A stretch of DNA of 64,000 nt from Fimbriimonadaceae bacterium (GTDB lineage: Bacteria; Armatimonadota; UBA10988): the NCBI GenBank assembly GCA_020850355.1, contig JADZEX010000077.1, positions 1-64,000 of the forward strand. Direction: 5' to 3'. Position 1 is the first letter of the stretch. Each line of letters opens with the position of its first letter. Positions 878-10,738 of this stretch are shown one piece after another. Made by a program: the position numbers and the translations under genes. A model generated the notes under the pieces. That model was not told where the DNA came from. It saw only the letters and a list, made by a program, of their open reading frames with translations, and searched no databases.

Positions 878-1117
878 ATGGCGCTGCTCACGCCGATCTG
901 CCAGATCTGCCAACACTACCGCGACGGGACGGGCACCTGCGGCGCGTTCCCGGCCGGCATCCCCAGCGAGATCCTGGAGTACCGCGCGGACCACCGGCTG
1001 CCGTTTGCTGGTGACCAGGGCCTGCGCTACGAGCGTGCCGCGGACGTCGACGACTCCGAGTACCGGCGCTACGCAGACATGCTGGATCGGTTCGTCAAGC
1101 CCGCTGCGCCCAGCTAG
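878..1117 (+). CDS. Small Cys/His protein, family A copy 1
   Basis: CQICQHY...C.AFPAGIPSEIL...DHRLPFAGDQGLRYE; shared pattern with five further ORFs. Confidence 0.75.
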   Translation: MALLTPICQICQHYRDGTGTCGAFPAGIPSEILEYRADHRLPFAGDQGLRYERAADVDDSEYRRYADMLDRFVKPAAPS

Positions 1118-1163
1118 CTTGCGGCCGCCAGCGCTGCAGACGACAATAGGATTGGAGCAAGCG

Positions 1164-1418
1164 ATGTCGCGTCCCGGGATCCTCTGCTGCTTCTGCCGCC
1201 ACGCCAACGCCTTGGGCGCGGATGCCTTCCACTGTGCCGCGTTCCCTGACGGGATTCCTCCGGAGATCCTGATTGGCGGGTTTGATCATCGCGCGCCGCA
1301 TCCGGACGACAGCGGGGTGCGCTTTGAGCCAAACGACTTGTTGCTGGACGAGTCCCAGCCGACCGTGCGGAAGCTGTTCGACATCGTGGTCCGCAACCTC
1401 GATCCGGTGACCGCCTAA
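1164..1418 (+). CDS. Small Cys/His protein, family A copy 2
   Basis: CCFCRHA...CAAFPDGIPPEIL...DHRAPHPDDSGVRFEP; ATG at 1164 chosen over the upstream start of the 1005..1418 ORF from paralog alignment. Confidence 0.75.
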   Translation: MSRPGILCCFCRHANALGADAFHCAAFPDGIPPEILIGGFDHRAPHPDDSGVRFEPNDLLLDESQPTVRKLFDIVVRNLDPVTA

Positions 1419-1609
1419 TGCCCGCCCAAGTCCACCTGCGGCTCGATATCAGCGGCGAGCGGCAGTTCAGCCGGCGGCTGCACGGGCTGCTGACTTTTGT
1501 GTCTGACTGGCAGCCGTTCGGCGAGCAGATCGCGGCCAACTGGAAGGACCTGGTCGCCGAGCGCTTCAAGCACCGCCGACTGCGCGGCGCCGTGCCACGG
1601 AGCCCTTAG
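1418..1609 (+). CDS. Short family B protein, resembling the N-terminus of phage virion-morphogenesis proteins
   Basis: VHLRLDISGERQFSRRLHGL...QIAANWKDLVAERF; start overlaps the previous stop (TAATG). Confidence 0.45.
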   Translation: MPAQVHLRLDISGERQFSRRLHGLLTFVSDWQPFGEQIAANWKDLVAERFKHRRLRGAVPRSP

Positions 1610-1837
1610 ATGCGTGGTGAACAGTGCGCGATGGGTCGGCATTACGACCGAACCAGTCGGTTGGTGCGGCGTTGCGCAGCCTTTCCAGAGGGCATTCCGC
1701 CGGAGCTGGTGACGCACGAGCGCGATCACCGGCGGCCGTATCCGGGGGATCTTGGGTACCGCTTTGAGCCTTCCGACGACCTACCAGCGGATCTGCGACG
1801 AGTGCTCGAACGGCGCCCTGCTATGCCCGCGGAGTAA
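1610..1837 (+). CDS. Small Cys/His protein, family A copy 3 (second Cys of the CxxC motif lost: CAMGRH)
   Basis: CAAFPEGIPPELV...DHRRPYPGDLGYRFEPSDDLP...PAMPAE. Confidence 0.7.
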   Translation: MRGEQCAMGRHYDRTSRLVRRCAAFPEGIPPELVTHERDHRRPYPGDLGYRFEPSDDLPADLRRVLERRPAMPAE

Positions 1838-1840
1838 TCG

Positions 1841-1975
1841 ATGCCCGTCGGCCAGATCCGGATGCGGTGGCAGACACTGCCGCCGCTCCTGGGTCGCCCG
1901 CTCCTTGGTGGGTATACTGTCGATGACGAGGTGCTCGCGCTGTACCGCCGGCTGGGCGGCGCGATGCCGAGGTGA
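1841..1975 (+). CDS. 44-aa family B ORF (MPVGQIRMRWQTLPPLLGRPLLGGYTVDDEVLALYRRLGGAMPR)
   Basis: Read by eye, below the ORF-track cutoff; strong nucleotide similarity to the 2216 and 2619 copies. Confidence 0.4.
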   Translation: MPVGQIRMRWQTLPPLLGRPLLGGYTVDDEVLALYRRLGGAMPR

Positions 1976-1981
1976 CACGAG

Positions 1982-2212
1982 ATGCTTCCCAACCAGTGCG
2001 GGATGTGTAAGCACTACCATCGCGGAGGGAAAGGCGAGCTGACCTGTCCGGCCTTTCCGTCAGGCATCCCCTTCGAGATCGTCACCTACGCCTTTGACCA
2101 CCGGCTGCCCTACCCTGGCGACCAGGGGATCCGGTTCGAGCCGGCACCCGACCTGCCGCCGAAGAGCCTGGCGCGGCTGCAGAACCGCGCGCCACTGACG
2201 CCCGCGGAGTAA
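1982..2212 (+). CDS. Small Cys/His protein, family A copy 4
   Basis: CGMCKHYH...TCPAFPSGIPFEIVTYAFDHRLPYPGDQGIRFEPAPDLPP. Confidence 0.78.
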   Translation: MLPNQCGMCKHYHRGGKGELTCPAFPSGIPFEIVTYAFDHRLPYPGDQGIRFEPAPDLPPKSLARLQNRAPLTPAE

Positions 2213-2215
2213 CCG

Positions 2216-2389
2216 ATGCCCGTTGGCCAGATCGGGATGCGGTTGCAGACACTGCCGCCGCTCCTGGGTCGCCCGTGCCACGGCGGGTATGACGTCGCAC
2301 GCGGGGCGGTGGAAATGGGGCAGCAAGCCGGGCGGGGCTGTGCCAATGAGGCGATGGTGGTCTATCGCCGGTACGGTGGGCCAGAATGA
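2216..2389 (+). CDS. 57-aa family B ORF with divergent C-terminus (MPVGQIGMRLQTLPPLLGRPCHGGYDVARGAVEMG...YGGPE)
   Basis: Near-identical 5' half to the 1841 copy; stop overlaps the next ATG (ATGA). Confidence 0.4.
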   Translation: MPVGQIGMRLQTLPPLLGRPCHGGYDVARGAVEMGQQAGRGCANEAMVVYRRYGGPE

Positions 2390-2619
2390 TCCTCGAAGCG
2401 CAGTGTGAGTTGTGCCAGCACTACCGCGGCCTGGTCGCCGGACGGACTGACCGCCACCCGACCTGCGCGGCTTTCCCCGACGGCATACCGATGGCGATCC
2501 TCGCTTTGCAGGCTGACCACCGCCTGCCCTACCCGGACGACCAGGGCATCCGCTGGGCGGCTCAGGACGGCATTACCGAGCGCCAGGTGGTGTTCATTGC
2601 ACCCGAGGATTACCTCTGA
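2386..2619 (+). CDS. Small Cys/His protein, family A copy 5
   Basis: CELCQHYR...TCAAFPDGIPMAILALQADHRLPYPDDQGIRW. Confidence 0.75.
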   Translation: MILEAQCELCQHYRGLVAGRTDRHPTCAAFPDGIPMAILALQADHRLPYPDDQGIRWAAQDGITERQVVFIAPEDYL

Positions 2620-2761
2620 TGCCGTGGGCCAGATCCGGATGCGGTTGCAGATCGAGGGCGAGGCGGTCTTCGATCGCCCGCTCCACGGTGGGTATACTGT
2701 TGACAGCGAAGCCCTGGCGCTGTGCGAGACGCTTGGCGGAGCAATGGCGCGGAGGCGCTGA
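2619..2761 (+). pseudogene. Frameshifted family B copy
   Basis: ATGCC-GTGGGCCAGATCCGG aligns to ATGCCCGTCGGCCAGATCCGG of the 1841 copy with one base missing; homology (VGQIRMRLQIEGEAVFDRPLHGGYTVDSEALALCETLGGAM) continues in the frame of ORF 2405..2761. Confidence 0.6.
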
Positions 2762-2991
2762 TGCACGGTGAACAGTGCGCGTTTTGCAGGCACTTCGACC
2801 GCAACAGGGCCGACGGCAGGCGCTGTGCCGCGTACCCTGACGGCATCCCGGAGGCGTTGACGATGGGGCAGGCAGACCATCGCCTGCCGTACGCTGGCGA
2901 TCAGGGATTGCGGTTTGACCCCGCTCCGGACCTGCCGGCATCGCTGCGAAAGCTCTTCGCCCGGCGCCCGCCCCTGACGCCCGCGGAGTAA
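2761..2991 (+). CDS. Small Cys/His protein, family A copy 6
   Basis: CAFCRHFDR...RCAAYPDGIPEAL...DHRLPYAGDQGLRFDPAPDLPAS...PLTPAE; M at 2761 matches paralogs. Confidence 0.78.
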   Translation: MHGEQCAFCRHFDRNRADGRRCAAYPDGIPEALTMGQADHRLPYAGDQGLRFDPAPDLPASLRKLFARRPPLTPAE

Positions 2992-2994
2992 GCC

Positions 2995-3198
2995 ATGTCC
3001 GTCGGACGGATCCGGATGCGCTTGGAGATCGAGGGTCAGGCGGTTTTGGATCGCACGATCCACGGGCTGATCGACCGCCTGGACGACCTGTCGGAGTTCT
3101 GGGATCAGGTGGTCGAGCTGTGGAGCGACTACGAGACGCGGATGTTGGCGGCGGAGGGCGCGGTCGATGGGGCGCCGCGCTGGCTGTGGGGCCGCTGA
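2995..3198 (+). CDS. 67-aa family B protein, longest copy; phage virion-morphogenesis-like N-terminus
   Basis: MSVGRIRMRLEIEGQAVLDRTIHGLIDRLDDLSEFWDQVVELWSDYETRMLAAEGAVDGAPRW; resembles the PVM-type start, lacks the usual C-terminal half. Confidence 0.5.
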   Translation: MSVGRIRMRLEIEGQAVLDRTIHGLIDRLDDLSEFWDQVVELWSDYETRMLAAEGAVDGAPRWLWGR

Positions 3199-3255: not shown

Positions 3256-4719
3256 GTGCACCTCAACACACTCTACTTCGGCGACAACCTGCAGGTGCTG
3301 CGCGAGCACTTCCCCGACGAGTGCGTGGACCTGGTCTACCTCGACCCGCCGTTCAATAGCAAGCGCGACTACAACTACATCTACCGCGACCTGGCCGGCG
3401 CCGGCGATACCGCCCAGGAGCAGGCCTTCTCCGACACCTGGACCTTCGCTGGCGCGGCCGCTGAGTTCCGCGAGGTGACCGAGAGCGGGTTCCCCGAGGG
3501 CAAGCTGATCGACGCGCTGCACGAGGTGTTCGGCGATACCTCGCTGGTAGCGTACCTGTCGGTCATGGCGCTGCGGCTGCGGGAACTGAGGCGGATCCTC
3601 AAGCCGACCGGCAGCCTGTACCTGCACTGCGACCCGACCGCCGGCCACTACCTGAAGATGGTCCTGGACTGCGTGCTTGGGTCGAGCGCGTTCAGGAGCG
3701 AGGTTGTCTGGAGCTACCGCCGCTGGCCGACCAGGACCCCCAACTACCAGCACATGCATGACCTGATCTACTACTACGCCAGAGGCCAGACAGTGACGTT
3801 CAATGTGCTCTACGAGCCGCCGTCGGAGAGCTTCCTGAAGCGGTTTCGGGGCATGGGCAACCGGCTGGACAGAGGTGCCACCACCAAGCGGTCGTCGGAC
3901 GAGCCGACACCCGGCTTGCCCATGCGCGATGTCTGGGATCTTTCCATTCTGGCGGGATCGTCATCCGAGCGACTCGGCTACCCCACCCAGAAGCCCCTGG
4001 CGCTGCTCAACCGCATCATCGCGGCCAGCTCGAACGAGGGCGACGTGGTGCTCGACCCGTTCTGCGGCTGCGGCACGGCAGTGGTCGCGGCGCAGAAGCT
4101 GGGCCGGCGGTGGTGCGGCATCGACATCACCAGCCTGTCGGTGACGCTGATGCGCCAGCGCCTGGCCGACAGCTTCCCCGAGATCTACCCGTCGCCGGGC
4201 GATGTGCCGGTGATCGGACTGCCGAAGGACCTGGCCGGCGCGCGGCTGCTGGCCGAGCTGGACAAGTACGACTTCCAGTTCTGGGCTCTGACGCTGGTCG
4301 GCGCGCACCCGCCGGGCGGCACCAAGAAGAAGGGCGCCGACAAGGGCGTCGACGGCGAGATCCTCTGGCGCGACGGCACCGGCAAGCTGCAGAAGGCCGT
4401 GGTCTCGGTCAAGGGCGGCCAGAGCGTGACCGACACGCAGCTCAAGGACCTGATCACTACCGTCGACGCCGCGAAGGCGGCGGTGGGGCTGTTCGTCTCG
4501 CTGGCCCAGCCGACCGGGCCGATGCGCAACCGGGCCGCCCTGGGCGGCAACTACACGATGGCCGGCACCGCGGCCACGTACCCGCGGATCCAGATGCTGA
4601 CCATCGAAGAGCTGCTGGCCGGCAAGCGCCCCGACCTGCCCAAGTCCAGCCGCCTCGACCCGCACAAGTCGGCAAGGGCGGTGGACGACGGTACCCAGGG
4701 CAGCCTCTTCGGCGAGTGA
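3256..4719 (+). CDS. Beta-class-like DNA methyltransferase (DPPFN ... DPFCGCGTA) fused to a C-terminal Mrr/PD-(D/E)XK-like nuclease domain
   Basis: LVYLDPPFNSKRDYN; DVVLDPFCGCGTAVVA; C-terminal KKGADKGVDG...AVVSVKGG. Confidence 0.8.
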   Translation: MHLNTLYFGDNLQVLREHFPDECVDLVYLDPPFNSKRDYNYIYRDLAGAGDTAQEQAFSDTWTFAGAAAEFREVTESGFPEGKLIDALHEVFGDTSLVAYLSVMALRLRELRRILKPTGSLYLHCDPTAGHYLKMVLDCVLGSSAFRSEVVWSYRRWPTRTPNYQHMHDLIYYYARGQTVTFNVLYEPPSESFLKRFRGMGNRLDRGATTKRSSDEPTPGLPMRDVWDLSILAGSSSERLGYPTQKPLALLNRIIAASSNEGDVVLDPFCGCGTAVVAAQKLGRRWCGIDITSLSVTLMRQRLADSFPEIYPSPGDVPVIGLPKDLAGARLLAELDKYDFQFWALTLVGAHPPGGTKKKGADKGVDGEILWRDGTGKLQKAVVSVKGGQSVTDTQLKDLITTVDAAKAAVGLFVSLAQPTGPMRNRAALGGNYTMAGTAATYPRIQMLTIEELLAGKRPDLPKSSRLDPHKSARAVDDGTQGSLFGE

Positions 4720-4738: not shown

Positions 4739-5788
4739 TCACCCCGCACACGCCGCAATCGCATCCTCCGCCTCGGCGCGGGTGCGGGCGGCGAGGTTCC
4801 AGAACAGGCGGCCGGCGGTCAGCTCGCGGCGCCAGGTGTGCAGTCGGGTGGCGTCGCCGCCGAGGATTTGGCCCTTGCCGAGGTGGTCGATGCGGCGGTA
4901 GAGGTCCGACCAGTCGTCGCGCTCGTGGGCCGCGCCGGGGACCCACTGGATCACGGCCAGCTCGGGCAGGCTGCAGAGCGCTGCCAGGTGGCGTAGCGCG
5001 CCAGGGCCGTCGAGGTGGTACTCGCCGCCGTCCATGCGGGCCAGCTCGCGCTGCAGGTAGGGCAGCGCGAACTCCCGGAAGTGCGCCTCGCTGATCATGA
5101 TTGAGAAGTCGCACTGCGGGAGGTTCAGGCGGCCTGTCGAGTACATGCCGTGGCGGTTGATGCTGCCCAGCCGCGGCCAGTCGAGGAGCTCGGCGAAAGC
5201 GTCCATCACCGCGGCGTGGGCGGTGTCGATCTGGTCCAACGCGCGATGCACCGCCGGCGGGTCGTCCAGCAGATCGGTCAACACCTGCTCGGCCCCGCGC
5301 AGCGCCACCAGGGCGTCGAGGTTGCCGACGAAGGTCGGCGGCGCCAGCAGCAGCTCGCCGGCCCAACGGGCTTGGAGCTGGGCGGCCAGACTGCTGATAT
5401 GCTGCCACCAGCGGCCCGCCGTTTGGAAGCGGATCTCGACCTCGGCGAGCGGCTGGCCAGCCAGCGGATGGGTCGGCCAGCCGCCTTCGCCAGGACTGGG
5501 GAAGCGCAGGTCGCAGCCCAGGAACGTCGCGAACTGGTCGGCGGCGAACTCCAGGTAGACGAAGGGGATGGCGGCGCCGATGAACTCGTGGCTGGCTGCC
5601 CAGCGCAGGCCCTGCTCGGCGAAGGCAACGACGTCGAGGTCTGGCCCCAGCGCGTAACTGGACGGCTTGGCGACGCGCTCCACGCCGGGCCGTGGGACGA
5701 CTGCCGCGACCAGCGGACCGGGCGAGGCGTGGCGCCAGAAGGCGTCCCAGGCGGCGCGCGCCGCGGCGAAGTCGGGCTTGCTGGTCAA
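4739..5788 (-). CDS. Uroporphyrinogen decarboxylase (URO-D)-like protein
   Basis: YHLDGPGALRHLAALCSLPELAVIQWVPGAA, typical of the URO-D-like methyltransferase superfamily. Confidence 0.6.
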   Translation of the reverse strand: MTSKPDFAAARAAWDAFWRHASPGPLVAAVVPRPGVERVAKPSSYALGPDLDVVAFAEQGLRWAASHEFIGAAIPFVYLEFAADQFATFLGCDLRFPSPGEGGWPTHPLAGQPLAEVEIRFQTAGRWWQHISSLAAQLQARWAGELLLAPPTFVGNLDALVALRGAEQVLTDLLDDPPAVHRALDQIDTAHAAVMDAFAELLDWPRLGSINRHGMYSTGRLNLPQCDFSIMISEAHFREFALPYLQRELARMDGGEYHLDGPGALRHLAALCSLPELAVIQWVPGAAHERDDWSDLYRRIDHLGKGQILGGDATRLHTWRRELTAGRLFWNLAARTRAEAEDAIAACAG

Positions 5789-5898: not shown

Positions 5899-8574
5899 AT
5901 GGCGATTCGCTGGGCCGGGCTGGCGGTCAGTTTGCTACTGGGCCCGCTGGAGGCGGCGCCCCAGGCGGTGTGGCTCGGCTGCGACAGCTTCGCGGTGCCC
6001 GACCGCACGACGCTCGACCTGCGACTGGAACTGTCGGCCGGCACGGTCACCGCGGTCGAACCGTGGTTGACGTTGCCGGGCGACACTCTGCGCGCCGACG
6101 GCGCCCGCCTGCTGCTGCGGCAGTACGACCCTGTGACCGACCCCGCGCAGCGCAACAAAGTCCTGCCGCGGGAGCGAGTCACGCCGAAGGGGCTGCTCGT
6201 GACGGTCGACGCCCCGCCGGACGCCACGCTGCGGGTGATCACCGACCGTGGCACGGCGACTTGGACGCTGACCGACCTGGCCGCCGGCGGTGAGCTGGCC
6301 GCGTTGGACGGGCTCCTGTTGGCCAGCGCGGCGCCGGCGGTCGAACGGGTCAGCGGTGACGCCTTCGCCAACGACTTCCCCACGGTCGCCAGCAGCGCGA
6401 CCGGCCAGCGCGCGGTGGCCTGGGTCGGCTCCGACGACCGCGCCGACCATCTGCTGCTGTGGCGCGAGGGCCGCGGCGTGCTGGAGGTCTCCCCGGCGCC
6501 GGGCGACTACCACAAGCCGGCGCTGGCCTGGTTCGGCGACGACCTGCTGGTGGTCTGGTCGGCGCAGCAGGAGGTCGGCAACTGGGAGCTCTACGGCCGG
6601 CTGGTCCGCGGCGCGACGCCCGGGCCGCTGCTGCGCCTGACCAACCGCCCCGGCACCGACTTCGTGCCGCGGGTCGCCGGCGGCCCGGCGGGCTGCTGGC
6701 TGGTCTGGCAGGCCTGGGGCGCGGGCGGCTTCGACATCCTGGCCGCCCCATTGACCGCCGCCGGACTGGGCGAGGTGCGCACGGTCACGGCCGATCCCAG
6801 CAACGACTGGGACCCGTCCCCCGCGGTGGCGCCCGACGGCACGCTGTGGGTCGCCTGGGACACCTATCGCCACGGCAGCTACGACATCTACGCGCGCCGC
6901 GTGGGGCCGGGTCCGCCCGGTCCAGAAGTGCCGCTGGCTGCCGGCCCGAACTACGAGGCTCATGCGGCGGCGGCCGTCACCGTCGACGGCACCTTGTGGG
7001 TGGCGTACGACGATGGTGGCCCCGACTGGGCCCTCGGCCGCGGCCGCGCTCTGCACGGCACCCGGCAGCTCGGACTGGTCGGCCTGCGCGGCGCCACGCG
7101 CCTGGCGGCACCGGGGTTGTTGCCCGCCATCCCGCCGCGGCTCCGCCCGCTCTGCGAACTGCCGGCCCTGGCGGTCGGCCAGCGCGGCGAGCTGCAGTTG
7201 CTCTTCCGGCACGTCACGGTGCTCAACCAGCAGCCGCCCAACGGGCCACAGCTCAGCCAGAGCCGCGGGATCTGGAACGTCTACCGGATGGCCAGCACGG
7301 CGACCGGCTGGACCACCGCCACCCCGCTGGCGCGCAGTGGCGGCCGGCAGGACATGCGGCTGGAAGTGGCCGCCGGCGGTCACCCAGCCATCGCCTTCGC
7401 CGCCGACGACCGCGAGCGACAGCGCAGCGAGATGTTCGTGGCGCACCAGGTGCAGGTCGCCCGGCTGACCTCACCCACGGCCGCTGGCCCGCCGCGGGGC
7501 GAACCGTTGCCGCCGCTCGACCCGGCCACCCTCGCCCGCGACGCTGCCCGGCCAGCGGCCGCCGCCTGGCGGGTGGGCGACCAGGAGTACCGCCTGCTGC
7601 TGGGCGATACGCATCGCCACACCGACCTTAGCCGTTGCGGGATGTGTCAGGACGGCTCGCTGCTGGACACCTACCGCTACGCCCTGGACGCCGCCCGGCT
7701 CGACTTCCTGGCGATCAGCGACCACGACCAGGACATCCTGCGGCACCGCTACGACCGCCAGGCACGCCCCTTCGACACTTATGCCTGGTGGCGCAGCCAG
7801 AAGTTCGCCGACCTGCTCAACCAGAGCCCGGCCTTCACGGCGGTCTTCGGCTACGAACACGGCGGCTCGACCCAGGCTCGCGGCGGCCACAAGAACGTGC
7901 TCTACGACGTCCGCGGCCGGCCGTGCCTCGAGGACGACGCCCCAGCAGCGCTGTTCAAGGCGCTCGGCGACTTCAACGCCCTGGCGATTCCGCACCAGCT
8001 CGCCGACGGCGCCTCGGCCACCGACTGGGCGGCCTACGACCCGCAGTGGGAGCCGGTCGCGGAGGTCTTCCAGGCGCGCGGCAACTACGAGCACGCCGCC
8101 GCGCCGCGCCAGCCGCAGGTCCGCCGCGAGGGGTTCTTCTACCAGGACGCCCTGCGCCAGGGCAAACGCGTTGGGGTGATTGCCTCCAGTGACCACGGCC
8201 TGACCTCCAACGCCTACGCCGGGGTCTGGGTCCGGGAGCCGACCCGCACGGGCGTTTTGGAGGGCCTCCGAGCGCGCCGCACCTTCGGCGCCACCGCTCG
8301 CCTGCGGCTGGAGTTCGCGGCCGGCGACCAGCCCGCCGGGGTGATCGCCAGGGGGCTGCCGCCGCGCTTCACTTGCCGCGTGGTCTCGCCGCAGCCGCTC
8401 GCCAGCGTCGACCTGATCGCCGCCGGCGAGGTCGTCTACAGCACCGCCCCCGCCAGCGACCGAGCCGAGTTCACCTGGGCCGACCAGCGCCCACAGCCCG
8501 CCGCCTGGTACTACCTTCGCGCCGCCACCACCGCCGGCGAGCTGGCCTGGTCGTCACCGATCTGGATGCAGTGA
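5899..8574 (+). CDS. Secreted protein with beta-propeller-like N-terminal region and C-terminal PHP-like metallophosphoesterase domain (DUF3604-like)
   Basis: Signal peptide MAIRWAGLAVSLLLGPLEA; LLGDTHRHTDLSRCGMCQDGSLLDTYRYALD...LAISDHDQ. Confidence 0.65.
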   Translation: MAIRWAGLAVSLLLGPLEAAPQAVWLGCDSFAVPDRTTLDLRLELSAGTVTAVEPWLTLPGDTLRADGARLLLRQYDPVTDPAQRNKVLPRERVTPKGLLVTVDAPPDATLRVITDRGTATWTLTDLAAGGELAALDGLLLASAAPAVERVSGDAFANDFPTVASSATGQRAVAWVGSDDRADHLLLWREGRGVLEVSPAPGDYHKPALAWFGDDLLVVWSAQQEVGNWELYGRLVRGATPGPLLRLTNRPGTDFVPRVAGGPAGCWLVWQAWGAGGFDILAAPLTAAGLGEVRTVTADPSNDWDPSPAVAPDGTLWVAWDTYRHGSYDIYARRVGPGPPGPEVPLAAGPNYEAHAAAAVTVDGTLWVAYDDGGPDWALGRGRALHGTRQLGLVGLRGATRLAAPGLLPAIPPRLRPLCELPALAVGQRGELQLLFRHVTVLNQQPPNGPQLSQSRGIWNVYRMASTATGWTTATPLARSGGRQDMRLEVAAGGHPAIAFAADDRERQRSEMFVAHQVQVARLTSPTAAGPPRGEPLPPLDPATLARDAARPAAAAWRVGDQEYRLLLGDTHRHTDLSRCGMCQDGSLLDTYRYALDAARLDFLAISDHDQDILRHRYDRQARPFDTYAWWRSQKFADLLNQSPAFTAVFGYEHGGSTQARGGHKNVLYDVRGRPCLEDDAPAALFKALGDFNALAIPHQLADGASATDWAAYDPQWEPVAEVFQARGNYEHAAAPRQPQVRREGFFYQDALRQGKRVGVIASSDHGLTSNAYAGVWVREPTRTGVLEGLRARRTFGATARLRLEFAAGDQPAGVIARGLPPRFTCRVVSPQPLASVDLIAAGEVVYSTAPASDRAEFTWADQRPQPAAWYYLRAATTAGELAWSSPIWMQ

Positions 8575-8968: not shown

Positions 8969-9010
8969 GCGCGTGGACCGGCGCGGCGCACGGTGTAGTA
9001 CAATCCGCCC

Positions 9011-10738
9011 ATGCAAGCGAATGCGCTCTACTTCGGCGACTGCCTGCCGGTGCTGCGCGGGTTCCCCGACGCCTGCATCGACCTGGTCTACCTCGACCCG
9101 CCGTTCAACTCCAAGCGCGACTACAACATGGTCTTCGCCGGCCAGGCCAGCGCCGACGACACCGCCCAGGTCAAGGCCTTCGAGGACACCTGGTCGTTCG
9201 AGGGCGCCGAGGCCGACTTCAACTACGTTGTCACCCACCACGACCGCCTCAGCCGGATCCTCGAAGCCCTCAAGCTGGCTTACAGCGACGACCGGGCGAT
9301 GCTCAACACGGTCGGCTACCTCGCCGTCATGGCGGCCCGCCTGATCGAGCTGCGGCGGGTCCTGAAGACGACCGGCAGCCTCTACCTGCATTGTGATCCA
9401 ACCGCCAGCCACTATCTCAAGATGGTGCTGGACGCCACCTTTGGACCAGCGCGGTTCCTCAATGAGCTGATCTGGCAGCGCACCCATGCTCACGGCGGCG
9501 CGCGGCGGTACGGGCCGGTGCACGATGTGCTGCTGCTATACGGCTGTAGCGACTCACACTGCTGGACGGATCCCCGTTTACCGCATCGGGAGCCGTACCT
9601 GGAACGGCACTTCCGAAGTGTCGACGCGGCATCCGGCCGACGGTTCCAGGCGATCACGCTGACTGGCTCCGGCGTGCGGCACGGCGACTCCGGGCAGCCC
9701 TGGCGAGGGGTCGACCCGACCTCGGTGGGACGCCACTGGGCGGTGCCGCGGGCCGTCCTGAGCCGCCACGGCCTGGCTGGCAGAAGTCCGCAAGAGGCCC
9801 TCGACGCCCTGGACGCCGCGGGACTGGTCCACTGGCCCGAGAAGGCCGGCGGCGTGCCTCGGCTGAAGCACTACGCCGACGAACTCGACGGGGCCAGCGT
9901 GCAGGACGTCTGGAGCGACATCAACCCGATCTCGGCGCACGCTGCCGAACGCCTCGGCTACCCCACCCAGAAGCCCCTGGCGCTGCTCGAACGGATCATC
10001 GCCGCCAGCAGCAACCCTGGGGACGTGGTGCTTGACCCGTTTTGCGGCTGCGGGACGGCCGTGGTGGCATCGCAGAAGCTGGGCCGGCAGTGGGTCGGCA
10101 TCGACATCACCAGCCTGGCGACCAGCACCATCCGCAAGCGGCTGATCGAGAGCTTCCCGGAGGCCTTCCCGACGCCGGCGAGCATCCCGGTGGTGGGCTT
10201 CCCGGTGGACGTCGCCGGGGCGAAGGAGCTGGCCGGCGTTGGGCGTGAGCTGCCGCCGAAGGAAGCGCTGGCGACGCGGCACAACTTCCAGAACTGGATC
10301 CTCTCTCTGCTGCCGGAGGCCCGACCGAAGGGTGCGGCGCCGAAGAAGGGCGCCGACCAGGGCATCGACGGCCTGTGGCTATGGCAGGACCTGGACGGGG
10401 CGACGCAACGCGGGCTGATCTCGGTCAAGAGCGGCCACGTCAACGCCAGCCACGTGCGCGACCTGGTCGGCACGATGCAGCGCGAGAGCGCCGCGATGGG
10501 GCTGCTGGTGACGCTGGAGCCGCCGTCGAAGGCGATGCTCTCCGAAGCCGCGGTGGCGGGCCGTTACGAACTGGCCCAGGCGAGGGCAAGCTACCCGCGG
10601 GTGCAGGTGGTAACGGTCGAGGAGCTGCTGGCCGGCCGGCTGCCCGAGACGCCGTCCACCAGCCGCCTGCGGGCCTTCAAGCAGGCCGTCGCGGTCGACG
10701 CCGATCTCGGCCGGCAAGGCCGGCTGTTCCCTGACTGA
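9011..10738 (+). CDS. Second DNA methyltransferase-nuclease fusion, paralog of 3256..4719 with a longer central region
   Basis: LVYLDPPFNSKRDYN; DVVLDPFCGCGTAVVA; KKGADQGIDG...GLISVKSG. Confidence 0.8.
   Translation: MQANALYFGDCLPVLRGFPDACIDLVYLDPPFNSKRDYNMVFAGQASADDTAQVKAFEDTWSFEGAEADFNYVVTHHDRLSRILEALKLAYSDDRAMLNTVGYLAVMAARLIELRRVLKTTGSLYLHCDPTASHYLKMVLDATFGPARFLNELIWQRTHAHGGARRYGPVHDVLLLYGCSDSHCWTDPRLPHREPYLERHFRSVDAASGRRFQAITLTGSGVRHGDSGQPWRGVDPTSVGRHWAVPRAVLSRHGLAGRSPQEALDALDAAGLVHWPEKAGGVPRLKHYADELDGASVQDVWSDINPISAHAAERLGYPTQKPLALLERIIAASSNPGDVVLDPFCGCGTAVVASQKLGRQWVGIDITSLATSTIRKRLIESFPEAFPTPASIPVVGFPVDVAGAKELAGVGRELPPKEALATRHNFQNWILSLLPEARPKGAAPKKGADQGIDGLWLWQDLDGATQRGLISVKSGHVNASHVRDLVGTMQRESAAMGLLVTLEPPSKAMLSEAAVAGRYELAQARASYPRVQVVTVEELLAGRLPETPSTSRLRAFKQAVAVDADLGRQGRLFPD

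What the first reader, a model, noticed from the sequence alone, without database searches (positions are those of the whole stretch)
878..3198. Tandem array of six small Cys/His proteins (family A) interleaved with short family B ORFs
Seen: six ORFs share Cx2CxH...C.AFP.GIP.ei...DHR.P.pgDqG.rfE, and from 1610 on they alternate with B ORFs sharing nucleotide-level blocks. Copies 4-6 are more alike than 1-3, suggesting ongoing tandem duplication. Inference: such arrays often mark diversifying functions (immunity genes, specificity factors, antitoxins), and the array sits immediately upstream of a methyltransferase-nuclease fusion. I recall similar small hypothetical proteins in other bacteria but cannot name a family, so the function is open.
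Basis: partly seen in the sequence, partly recalled or inferred. Interest (0 to 1): 0.72.

Follow-up and report, generated by a model that had tools for sequence, protein, structure and literature searches.

The report
Orphan array of phage-effector partner genes
A bacterial chromosome carries six different versions of a small cysteine-rich gene that in phages almost always follows the gene of an enzyme-bearing phage-head protein; it looks like a leftover or captured bank of the protective partners of those enzymes, but that protective role is inferred, not shown.

Summary
The array is real: six intact ORFs (A1-A6, 878-2991) of one family that has no Pfam or NCBIfam match but hits PHROG 33375 (unknown function). 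Outside the window the family is mainly a phage gene. Of 209 non-redundant genes directly 5' of A, 153 encode proteins with a zincin-like, JAB-like or ADP-ribosyltransferase domain, mostly C-terminal on phage MuF head proteins and sometimes on actinobacterial secreted-toxin-like proteins. In a MuF survey not selected for A, A followed 3 of 7 enzyme-bearing MuF genes and 0 of 35 others (p = 0.003). The 'B family' is not a gene family: its ORFs are remnants of the two genes that flank A in Mu-like phages, the start of gpG and, in B2 and B3, the C-terminal tip of the MuF effector. Spacer blocks reach 83-97% identity while A bodies are 47-67%, so the array grew by cassette exchange or accretion, not by recent tandem duplication of A. 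The genome holds no detectable MuF or zincin effector. Best reading: an orphan polyimmunity-like array of predicted partners (probably inhibitors) of phage-delivered effectors. Two related phages that differ in effector domain fit this: their A genes differ too and the old A persists downstream. The immunity function itself is untested.

The parts
878..1117 (+). A1, small Cys/His protein (79 aa)
1164..1418 (+). A2 (84 aa); groups with a phage A (L112) at 98/87 support rather than with the other window copies
1418..1609 (+). Spacer ORF B1: truncated gpG-like N-terminus (63 aa)
   Evidence: phmmer 1.1e-10 to phage gpG L244 and 1.5e-6 to G002 prophage gpG; gpG identified by PF05069 and phrog_26
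1610..1837 (+). A3 (75 aa), second Cys of the Cx2C lost
1841..1975 (+). Spacer ORF B2: gpG-like start fused to a MuF/zincin C-terminal tip (..GYTVDDEVLALYRRLGGAMPR)
   Evidence: tail matches zincin C-terminal tails 20/115 against 22/2533 internal segments, p = 2.5e-17
1982..2212 (+). A4 (76 aa); AlphaFold2 mean pLDDT 85.8
2216..2389 (+). Spacer ORF B3: gpG-like start fused to an effector tail (..AMVVYRRYGGPE)
   Evidence: 9/115 against 3/2533, p = 8e-11
2386..2619 (+). A5 (77 aa)
2621..2761 (+). Frameshifted spacer remnant of the same chimaeric type (VGQIRMRLQIEGEAVFDRPLHGGYTVDSEALALCETLGGAMARRR); not reached from the ATG at 2619, which reads another frame
   Evidence: its tail match alone is not significant
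2761..2991 (+). A6 (76 aa)
2995..3198 (+). Spacer ORF B5: truncated gpG-like N-terminus (67 aa)
   Evidence: phmmer 2.1e-7 to G002 prophage gpG; tblastn 4e-8
3256..4719 (+). DNA N6/N4 methyltransferase fused to an Mrr/NA-iREase-like domain; neighbour, possibly from the same phage, not shown to work with A

Best explanation
The locus is an orphan, homogeneous 'polyimmunity-like' array taken from the head-gene region of Mu-like phages. There the order is portal, MuF minor head protein carrying an enzymatic C-terminus, A, gpG. SHOWN here: that gene order in relatives; the association of A with enzyme-bearing proteins; that the spacers contain gpG starts and, in two of them, effector-tail sequence; that the A copies are far more diverged than the best spacer blocks; and that no MuF or zincin effector is detectable in this genome. 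INFERRED: A is made from the gene next to its effector and binds it, keeping the zincin, JAB-like or ADP-ribosyltransferase domain inactive in the cell that builds the phage, as known MuF immunity proteins do. The chromosome has kept six divergent A cassettes without effectors, assembled by recombination through shared flanks, either as a reservoir or as protection against effectors injected by related phages.
For: 153 of 209 non-redundant upstream genes carry a zincin, JAB-like or ART domain (93 of the 102 with a recognised MuF core); the A domain starts a median 21 nt after the effector stop. A survey of MuF genes found without reference to A: A adjacent to 3/7 enzyme-bearing MuF against 0/35 others, p = 0.003. 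Actinobacterial proteins that share only the C-terminal zincin domain with MuF effectors also have A behind them (L048, L067, L070), so A follows the enzyme domain rather than the phage head. Natural swap: L377 and L083 share a MuF core (73.6% nt over 919 nt), but L377 ends in a JAB-like domain followed by one A, while L083 ends in a zincin domain followed by a different A and further copies, one of which is 77.5% nt identical to L377's A. A's from JAB-type loci resemble each other (64% of nearest neighbours against 14% expected). Zincin signature HExGH..E, JAB signature E..HNHP..S..D. [quoted passage not shown] No MuF or zincin match in this genome, positive controls positive.
Against: No toxicity or neutralisation has been tested. 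One A family serving three enzyme classes is unusual, though versatile immunity families exist, and ART-linked A's do not separate from zincin-linked ones. The domain models were built from A-linked proteins, so they may under-detect enzymes in A-less MuF; by extension length alone the survey gives 3/17 against 0/25 (my calculation, p about 0.06). About 27% of upstream genes show no such domain, and many chromosomal A's stand alone. Zincins in phage polyvalent proteins may serve self-processing rather than toxicity (PMC5512222). A3 has lost a conserved Cys. The tree has few columns and the AU test does not reject one origin of the six copies (p = 0.107). No sigma-70-type promoter was found.
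Confidence: 0.52

Rival explanations
1. A is an accessory of effector delivery or maturation, not immunity: a zinc-binding chaperone, packaging adaptor or protease cofactor that loads or processes the enzymatic domain. The chromosomal array is a by-product of phage recombination.
For: One conserved family serves several enzyme classes; A persists between MuF and gpG inside the head module (L039, L244, L304); Brevibacillus phage Jenst carries A just downstream of a low-copy virion protein; zincins are proposed to process phage polyvalent proteins.
Against: A also follows zincin proteins that lack the MuF core; it is not linked to MuF genes without the enzyme; A differs with the effector domain in the L083/L377 pair and is then kept as extra copies, which is expected of immunity genes rather than of a loading factor.
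Confidence: 0.22
2. The array is a non-functional relic of one or more degraded prophages; the A ORFs are still open only because they are short and GC-rich.
For: gpG pieces are truncated and one spacer is frameshifted; no portal, MuF or capsid gene remains in the window; A3 has lost a conserved Cys; no promoter match.
Against: All six A ORFs are intact with the core motif kept, while the spacers between them have decayed; an unselected relic should decay evenly. Similar effector-free multi-copy A loci exist elsewhere (L028 with four copies).
Confidence: 0.17
3. A belongs to the neighbouring methyltransferase-nuclease gene as an antitoxin, specificity or control factor.
For: About 58 bp separate the last spacer ORF from the methyltransferase gene; elsewhere A sits beside type IIG restriction genes in three lineages (L305, L051, L069) and beside other methyltransferase-like genes (L307, L314) (L069 assigned by its similarity to the other two).
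Against: Most A's lie nowhere near a restriction gene and follow phage effectors instead. The second, paralogous methyltransferase-nuclease gene (9011-10735) has none of the genome's A copies next to it. Methyltransferases are common phage and defence-island cargo.
Confidence: 0.07

Closest known systems
Homogeneous polyimmunity loci (Zhang et al. 2012, PMC3482391)
   Same: Tandem, same-strand, closely spaced, distantly related paralogues of one family without complete toxin genes
   Different: Family A is not matched by any Pfam or NCBIfam model; spacers keep remnants of the phage genes that flank A; its immunity function is unproven; the paper lists four-plus-gene loci only in proteobacteria, bacteroidetes, firmicutes and actinobacteria
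MuF polymorphic toxins and their downstream small ORFs (Jamet et al. 2017, PMC5576092; Apk2/IapK/Aph1, PMC12226406)
   Same: A is the small ORF directly 3' of MuF proteins with a metallopeptidase, JAB-like or ART C-terminus
   Different: The window has A's but no MuF toxin; A was not found named in the papers searched; A also follows actinobacterial zincin proteins without MuF
PHROG 33375
   Same: All six window proteins match it
   Different: That family has no assigned function
Displaced (orphan) immunity genes of CDI/Rhs-type polymorphic toxin loci (own knowledge)
   Same: Effector-end remnants followed by partner genes, and an old partner kept after a domain swap (L083 against L377)
   Different: The carrier is a phage head protein, and only about 20 residues of effector tail remain in a spacer

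Membership tests
Homogeneous polyimmunity locus | Tandem paralogues of one immunity family, same strand, short intergenic gaps | tested here: met
   Six A's, one strand, gaps of about 46-191 nt between successive A ORFs
[quoted passage not shown]
   33-57% aa, 48-63% nt identity
Homogeneous polyimmunity locus | Not interrupted by toxin genes | tested here: met
   Only short effector-tail remnants
Homogeneous polyimmunity locus | The proteins neutralise toxins | not testable with these tools
   Needs co-expression assays
Immunity gene of MuF polymorphic toxins | Small ORF (<150 aa) directly 3' of a MuF gene that carries a toxin domain | tested here: met
   In relatives and phages: 93 of 102 MuF-core proteins upstream of A carry an enzyme domain; the window itself has no MuF
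Immunity gene of MuF polymorphic toxins | Linked to toxin-bearing rather than short MuF genes | tested here: met
   3/7 against 0/35, p = 0.003; 3/17 against 0/25 by extension length alone
Immunity gene of MuF polymorphic toxins | Matched to the toxin type | tested here: inconclusive
   JAB-linked A's cluster, ART-linked do not; the L083/L377 swap fits
PHROG 33375 | Profile match | tested here: met
   E 3.5e-9 to 4.6e-5 for all six
Mu-like prophage | Portal, MuF and capsid genes present | tested here: not met
   Only gpG N-terminal pieces in the window; no MuF in the genome
Phage virion morphogenesis gpG (PF05069), for the B ORFs | Full-length gpG of about 165 aa | tested here: not met
   Homologous only to the N-terminal 50-65 residues
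Restriction-modification component | Constant association with RM genes | tested here: not met
   RM neighbours only in a minority of chromosomal loci

The most novel reading that the evidence does not exclude
The host has captured a set of partner genes from several Mu-like phages, without the effectors, as a standing defence. The array would neutralise enzymes that incoming phages inject from their heads and so block a protein-delivery step of infection. That would make it an anti-phage system built from phage immunity cassettes.
Probability: 0.25. Interest if true: 0.82.

Novelty: new variant of a known kind. Interest (0 to 1): 0.6.

Why it matters
A widespread phage gene family without a function (PHROG 33375; a viral scan confirmed relatives in 505 of the 600 candidate stretches kept) now has a specific, testable role: partner of phage-head-delivered zincin, JAB-like and ART effectors. 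If it is an immunity family, A becomes a handle for finding injected phage effectors, and the chromosomal array shows hosts storing protection against proteins that arrive with phage DNA. The spacers also record how such arrays form, by recombination at the phage MuF-A-gpG boundary.

Tried and rejected
Pfam, NCBIfam and PADLOC for A: no credible hit (PADLOC was run on A1, A4 and A6). Foldseek of the A4 model: no PDB relative; the best BFVD matches are unnamed small phage proteins at 40-42% identity; PDB sequence search gave only chance hits. The idea that B is one gene family was rejected. Recent tandem duplication of A was rejected on divergence. A as an RM component was rejected as the general role, although RM neighbours recur. 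A PDB profile search for the JAB-like domain returned mostly artificial repeat proteins, so that label rests on its motif. A Foldseek search of the L083 zincin model gave weak matches only (E about 0.2 or more), led by zinc metallopeptidases of the PPEP/lethal-factor group, in line with the sequence search. The MuF alignment was too diverse for a viral scan, so the survey used PF04233 in genomes. A phylogenetic test of one origin for A1-A6 was inconclusive (AU p = 0.107), although A2 groups with a phage A at 98/87. Surveys in other phyla could not be run ('of' needs a genome handle). G001 and G002 have a close relative of the upstream gene (69-755) but no array beside it, and their downstream genes do not match the window's, so the empty site could not be read.

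Full report
What is there. The window lies on contig C81 of a 6.67 Mb, 95% complete genome. Six ORFs of 75-84 codons (A1-A6) stand head to tail between a DsbD/CcdA-like gene (69-755) and a DNA methyltransferase-REase fusion gene (3256-4719). They share 17 invariant columns, are the only copies in the genome and have no family in Pfam, NCBIfam or PADLOC, but all hit PHROG 33375 of unknown function. AlphaFold2 gives A4 a confident small fold (pLDDT 85.8) with no relative in the PDB.

Where the family lives. In the window's phylum A is in 17 of 291 genomes. Most loci hold one copy; 22 of 292 hold two or more hits, including five in phage contig L083 and four in a Chloroflexi contig, L028. Some of those 22 are overlapping fetches of the same contig.

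What stands next to it. I collected the gene directly 5' of A. Of 209 non-redundant upstream proteins, 156 form one homology group, and the shared part is usually the last 150-190 residues. Three domain types account for 153 of the 209: a zincin-like domain (invariant HExxH plus downstream Glu; its best PDB matches are zinc metallopeptidases), a JAB-like domain (invariant E, HNH, D with P and S nearly so), and an ADP-ribosyltransferase domain (one member hits ADPrib_exo_Tox at 5.6e-31). In 102 cases the same protein has a recognisable MuF core, and 93 of those carry one of the enzymes. The A domain begins a median 21 nt after the effector stop. In Mu-like phages the order is portal, MuF effector, A, gpG, as in L244 and in the prophage of G002, a member of the window genome's own family. 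Actinomadura and Streptomyces proteins that share only the zincin domain with MuF effectors also have A behind them (L048, L067, L070).

Independent check. Starting from PF04233 rather than from A, 46 MuF genes were found in 39 of 291 genomes of the phylum. Of 42 usable ones, A directly follows 3 of the 7 with an enzyme domain and none of the 35 others, Fisher p = 0.003. The enzyme models were trained on A-linked proteins, which could bias this; by C-terminal extension length alone it is 3/17 against 0/25, p about 0.06 (my calculation).

What the spacers are. B1 and B5 match the N-terminus of gpG, the gene directly 3' of A in Mu-like phages (phmmer 1.1e-10 and 2.1e-7; gpG identified by PF05069 and phrog_26). 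B2 and B3 begin with the same gpG start but end in ..YRRLGGAMPR and ..YRRYGGPE. These ends match the C-terminal tips of zincin effectors (20/115 tails against 22/2533 internal segments, p = 2.5e-17; 9/115 against 3/2533, p = 8e-11; motif count). The spacer after A5 is the same chimaera with a frameshift; its tail match alone is not significant. So the repeated unit is effector tip - A - gpG start, and B is a recombination scar rather than a gene family.

How the array grew. Spacer blocks reach 83-97% identity between units, while the A bodies between them are near 47-67% and A synonymous sites are close to saturation. Synonymous divergence cannot be explained by positive selection on A, so the A bodies are older than the spacers that separate them. 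Five of the six copies are closer to some phage A than to any neighbour, and A6 ties. A2 groups with a phage A at 98/87 support, no bootstrap tree unites the six, but the AU test does not reject a single origin (p = 0.107). Cassette exchange or accretion through shared flanks fits best; recent tandem duplication of A does not.

What A probably does. Phage contigs L083 and L377 share a MuF core (73.6% nt identity over 919 nt). L377 ends in a JAB-like domain followed by one A. L083 ends in a zincin domain followed by a different A and then more copies, one of which (5275-5491) is 77.5% identical at nucleotide level to L377's A. Here the effector end and the adjacent A differ together while an old A is kept, as displaced immunity genes are in other polymorphic toxin loci. 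JAB-linked A's also resemble each other (64% of nearest neighbours against 14% expected), whereas ART-linked ones do not separate. [quoted passage not shown] PMC11699363), and that tandem, distantly related immunity paralogues form polyimmunity loci (PMC3482391). I infer that A is a partner, probably an inhibitor, of these effectors. A delivery or maturation partner is the main rival, because zincins in phage polyvalent proteins may act in self-processing (PMC5512222).

In this host. The genome has no match to PF04233 or to the zincin profile, with positive controls in three relatives. The JAB-like and ART domains were not searched in this genome. The rest of the window is ordinary metabolism plus a second, roughly 50% identical methyltransferase-REase gene at 9011-10735. 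A homologue of the methyltransferase gene lies next to a MuF-zincin-A cassette in the prophage of relative G117 (L034/L407), so array and methyltransferase may have a common phage source. The A's are therefore orphans as far as tested: a reservoir, a defence against effectors of related phages, or a relic. Intact A ORFs between decayed spacers favour retained function, but expression is unknown.

Verdict. The gene family, its link to phage-borne effectors and the origin of the spacers are well supported; the immunity role and the array's present use are inferences.

Noticed in passing
window 9011-10735 (+): Second DNA methyltransferase-REase fusion gene (575 aa), about 50% identical to the one at 3256-4719.
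   Followed up: partly
L305:1505-5087, L051:4313-8440, L069:3871-8117: A genes without a MuF effector lie beside type IIG restriction-modification genes in three distant lineages; could be shared defence-island placement or a second context for A.
   Followed up: partly
L028:2862-3768: Four-copy A array in a Chloroflexi MAG between sugar ABC-transporter-type and sugar-isomerase-like genes, with no phage gene noticed on the contig.
   Followed up: partly
L307 (G047 contig C47), near 5957-6118: A next to a gene that looks like a DUF262-type protein with a C-terminal HNH-like end (own reading of the sequence).
   Followed up: no
L080 (Methanothrix plasmid pGP6, 5423-5668) and L081 (Solidesulfovibrio plasmid pDMC2, 1508-1714): Single A genes on small plasmids, one directly after a MarR-family gene.
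   Followed up: no
L050:7929-9185 and 8978-10249: A domain at the start of longer open frames that continue into a WVTIHGRHVFI-like motif; possible A fusion proteins in a Methanospirillum phage region.
   Followed up: no
L048, L059, L066, L067, L070: Actinomadura and Streptomyces loci where long secreted-toxin-like proteins are followed by A; in L048, L067 and L070 the C-terminus is a zincin domain. Looks like an effector-partner set outside phages.
   Followed up: partly
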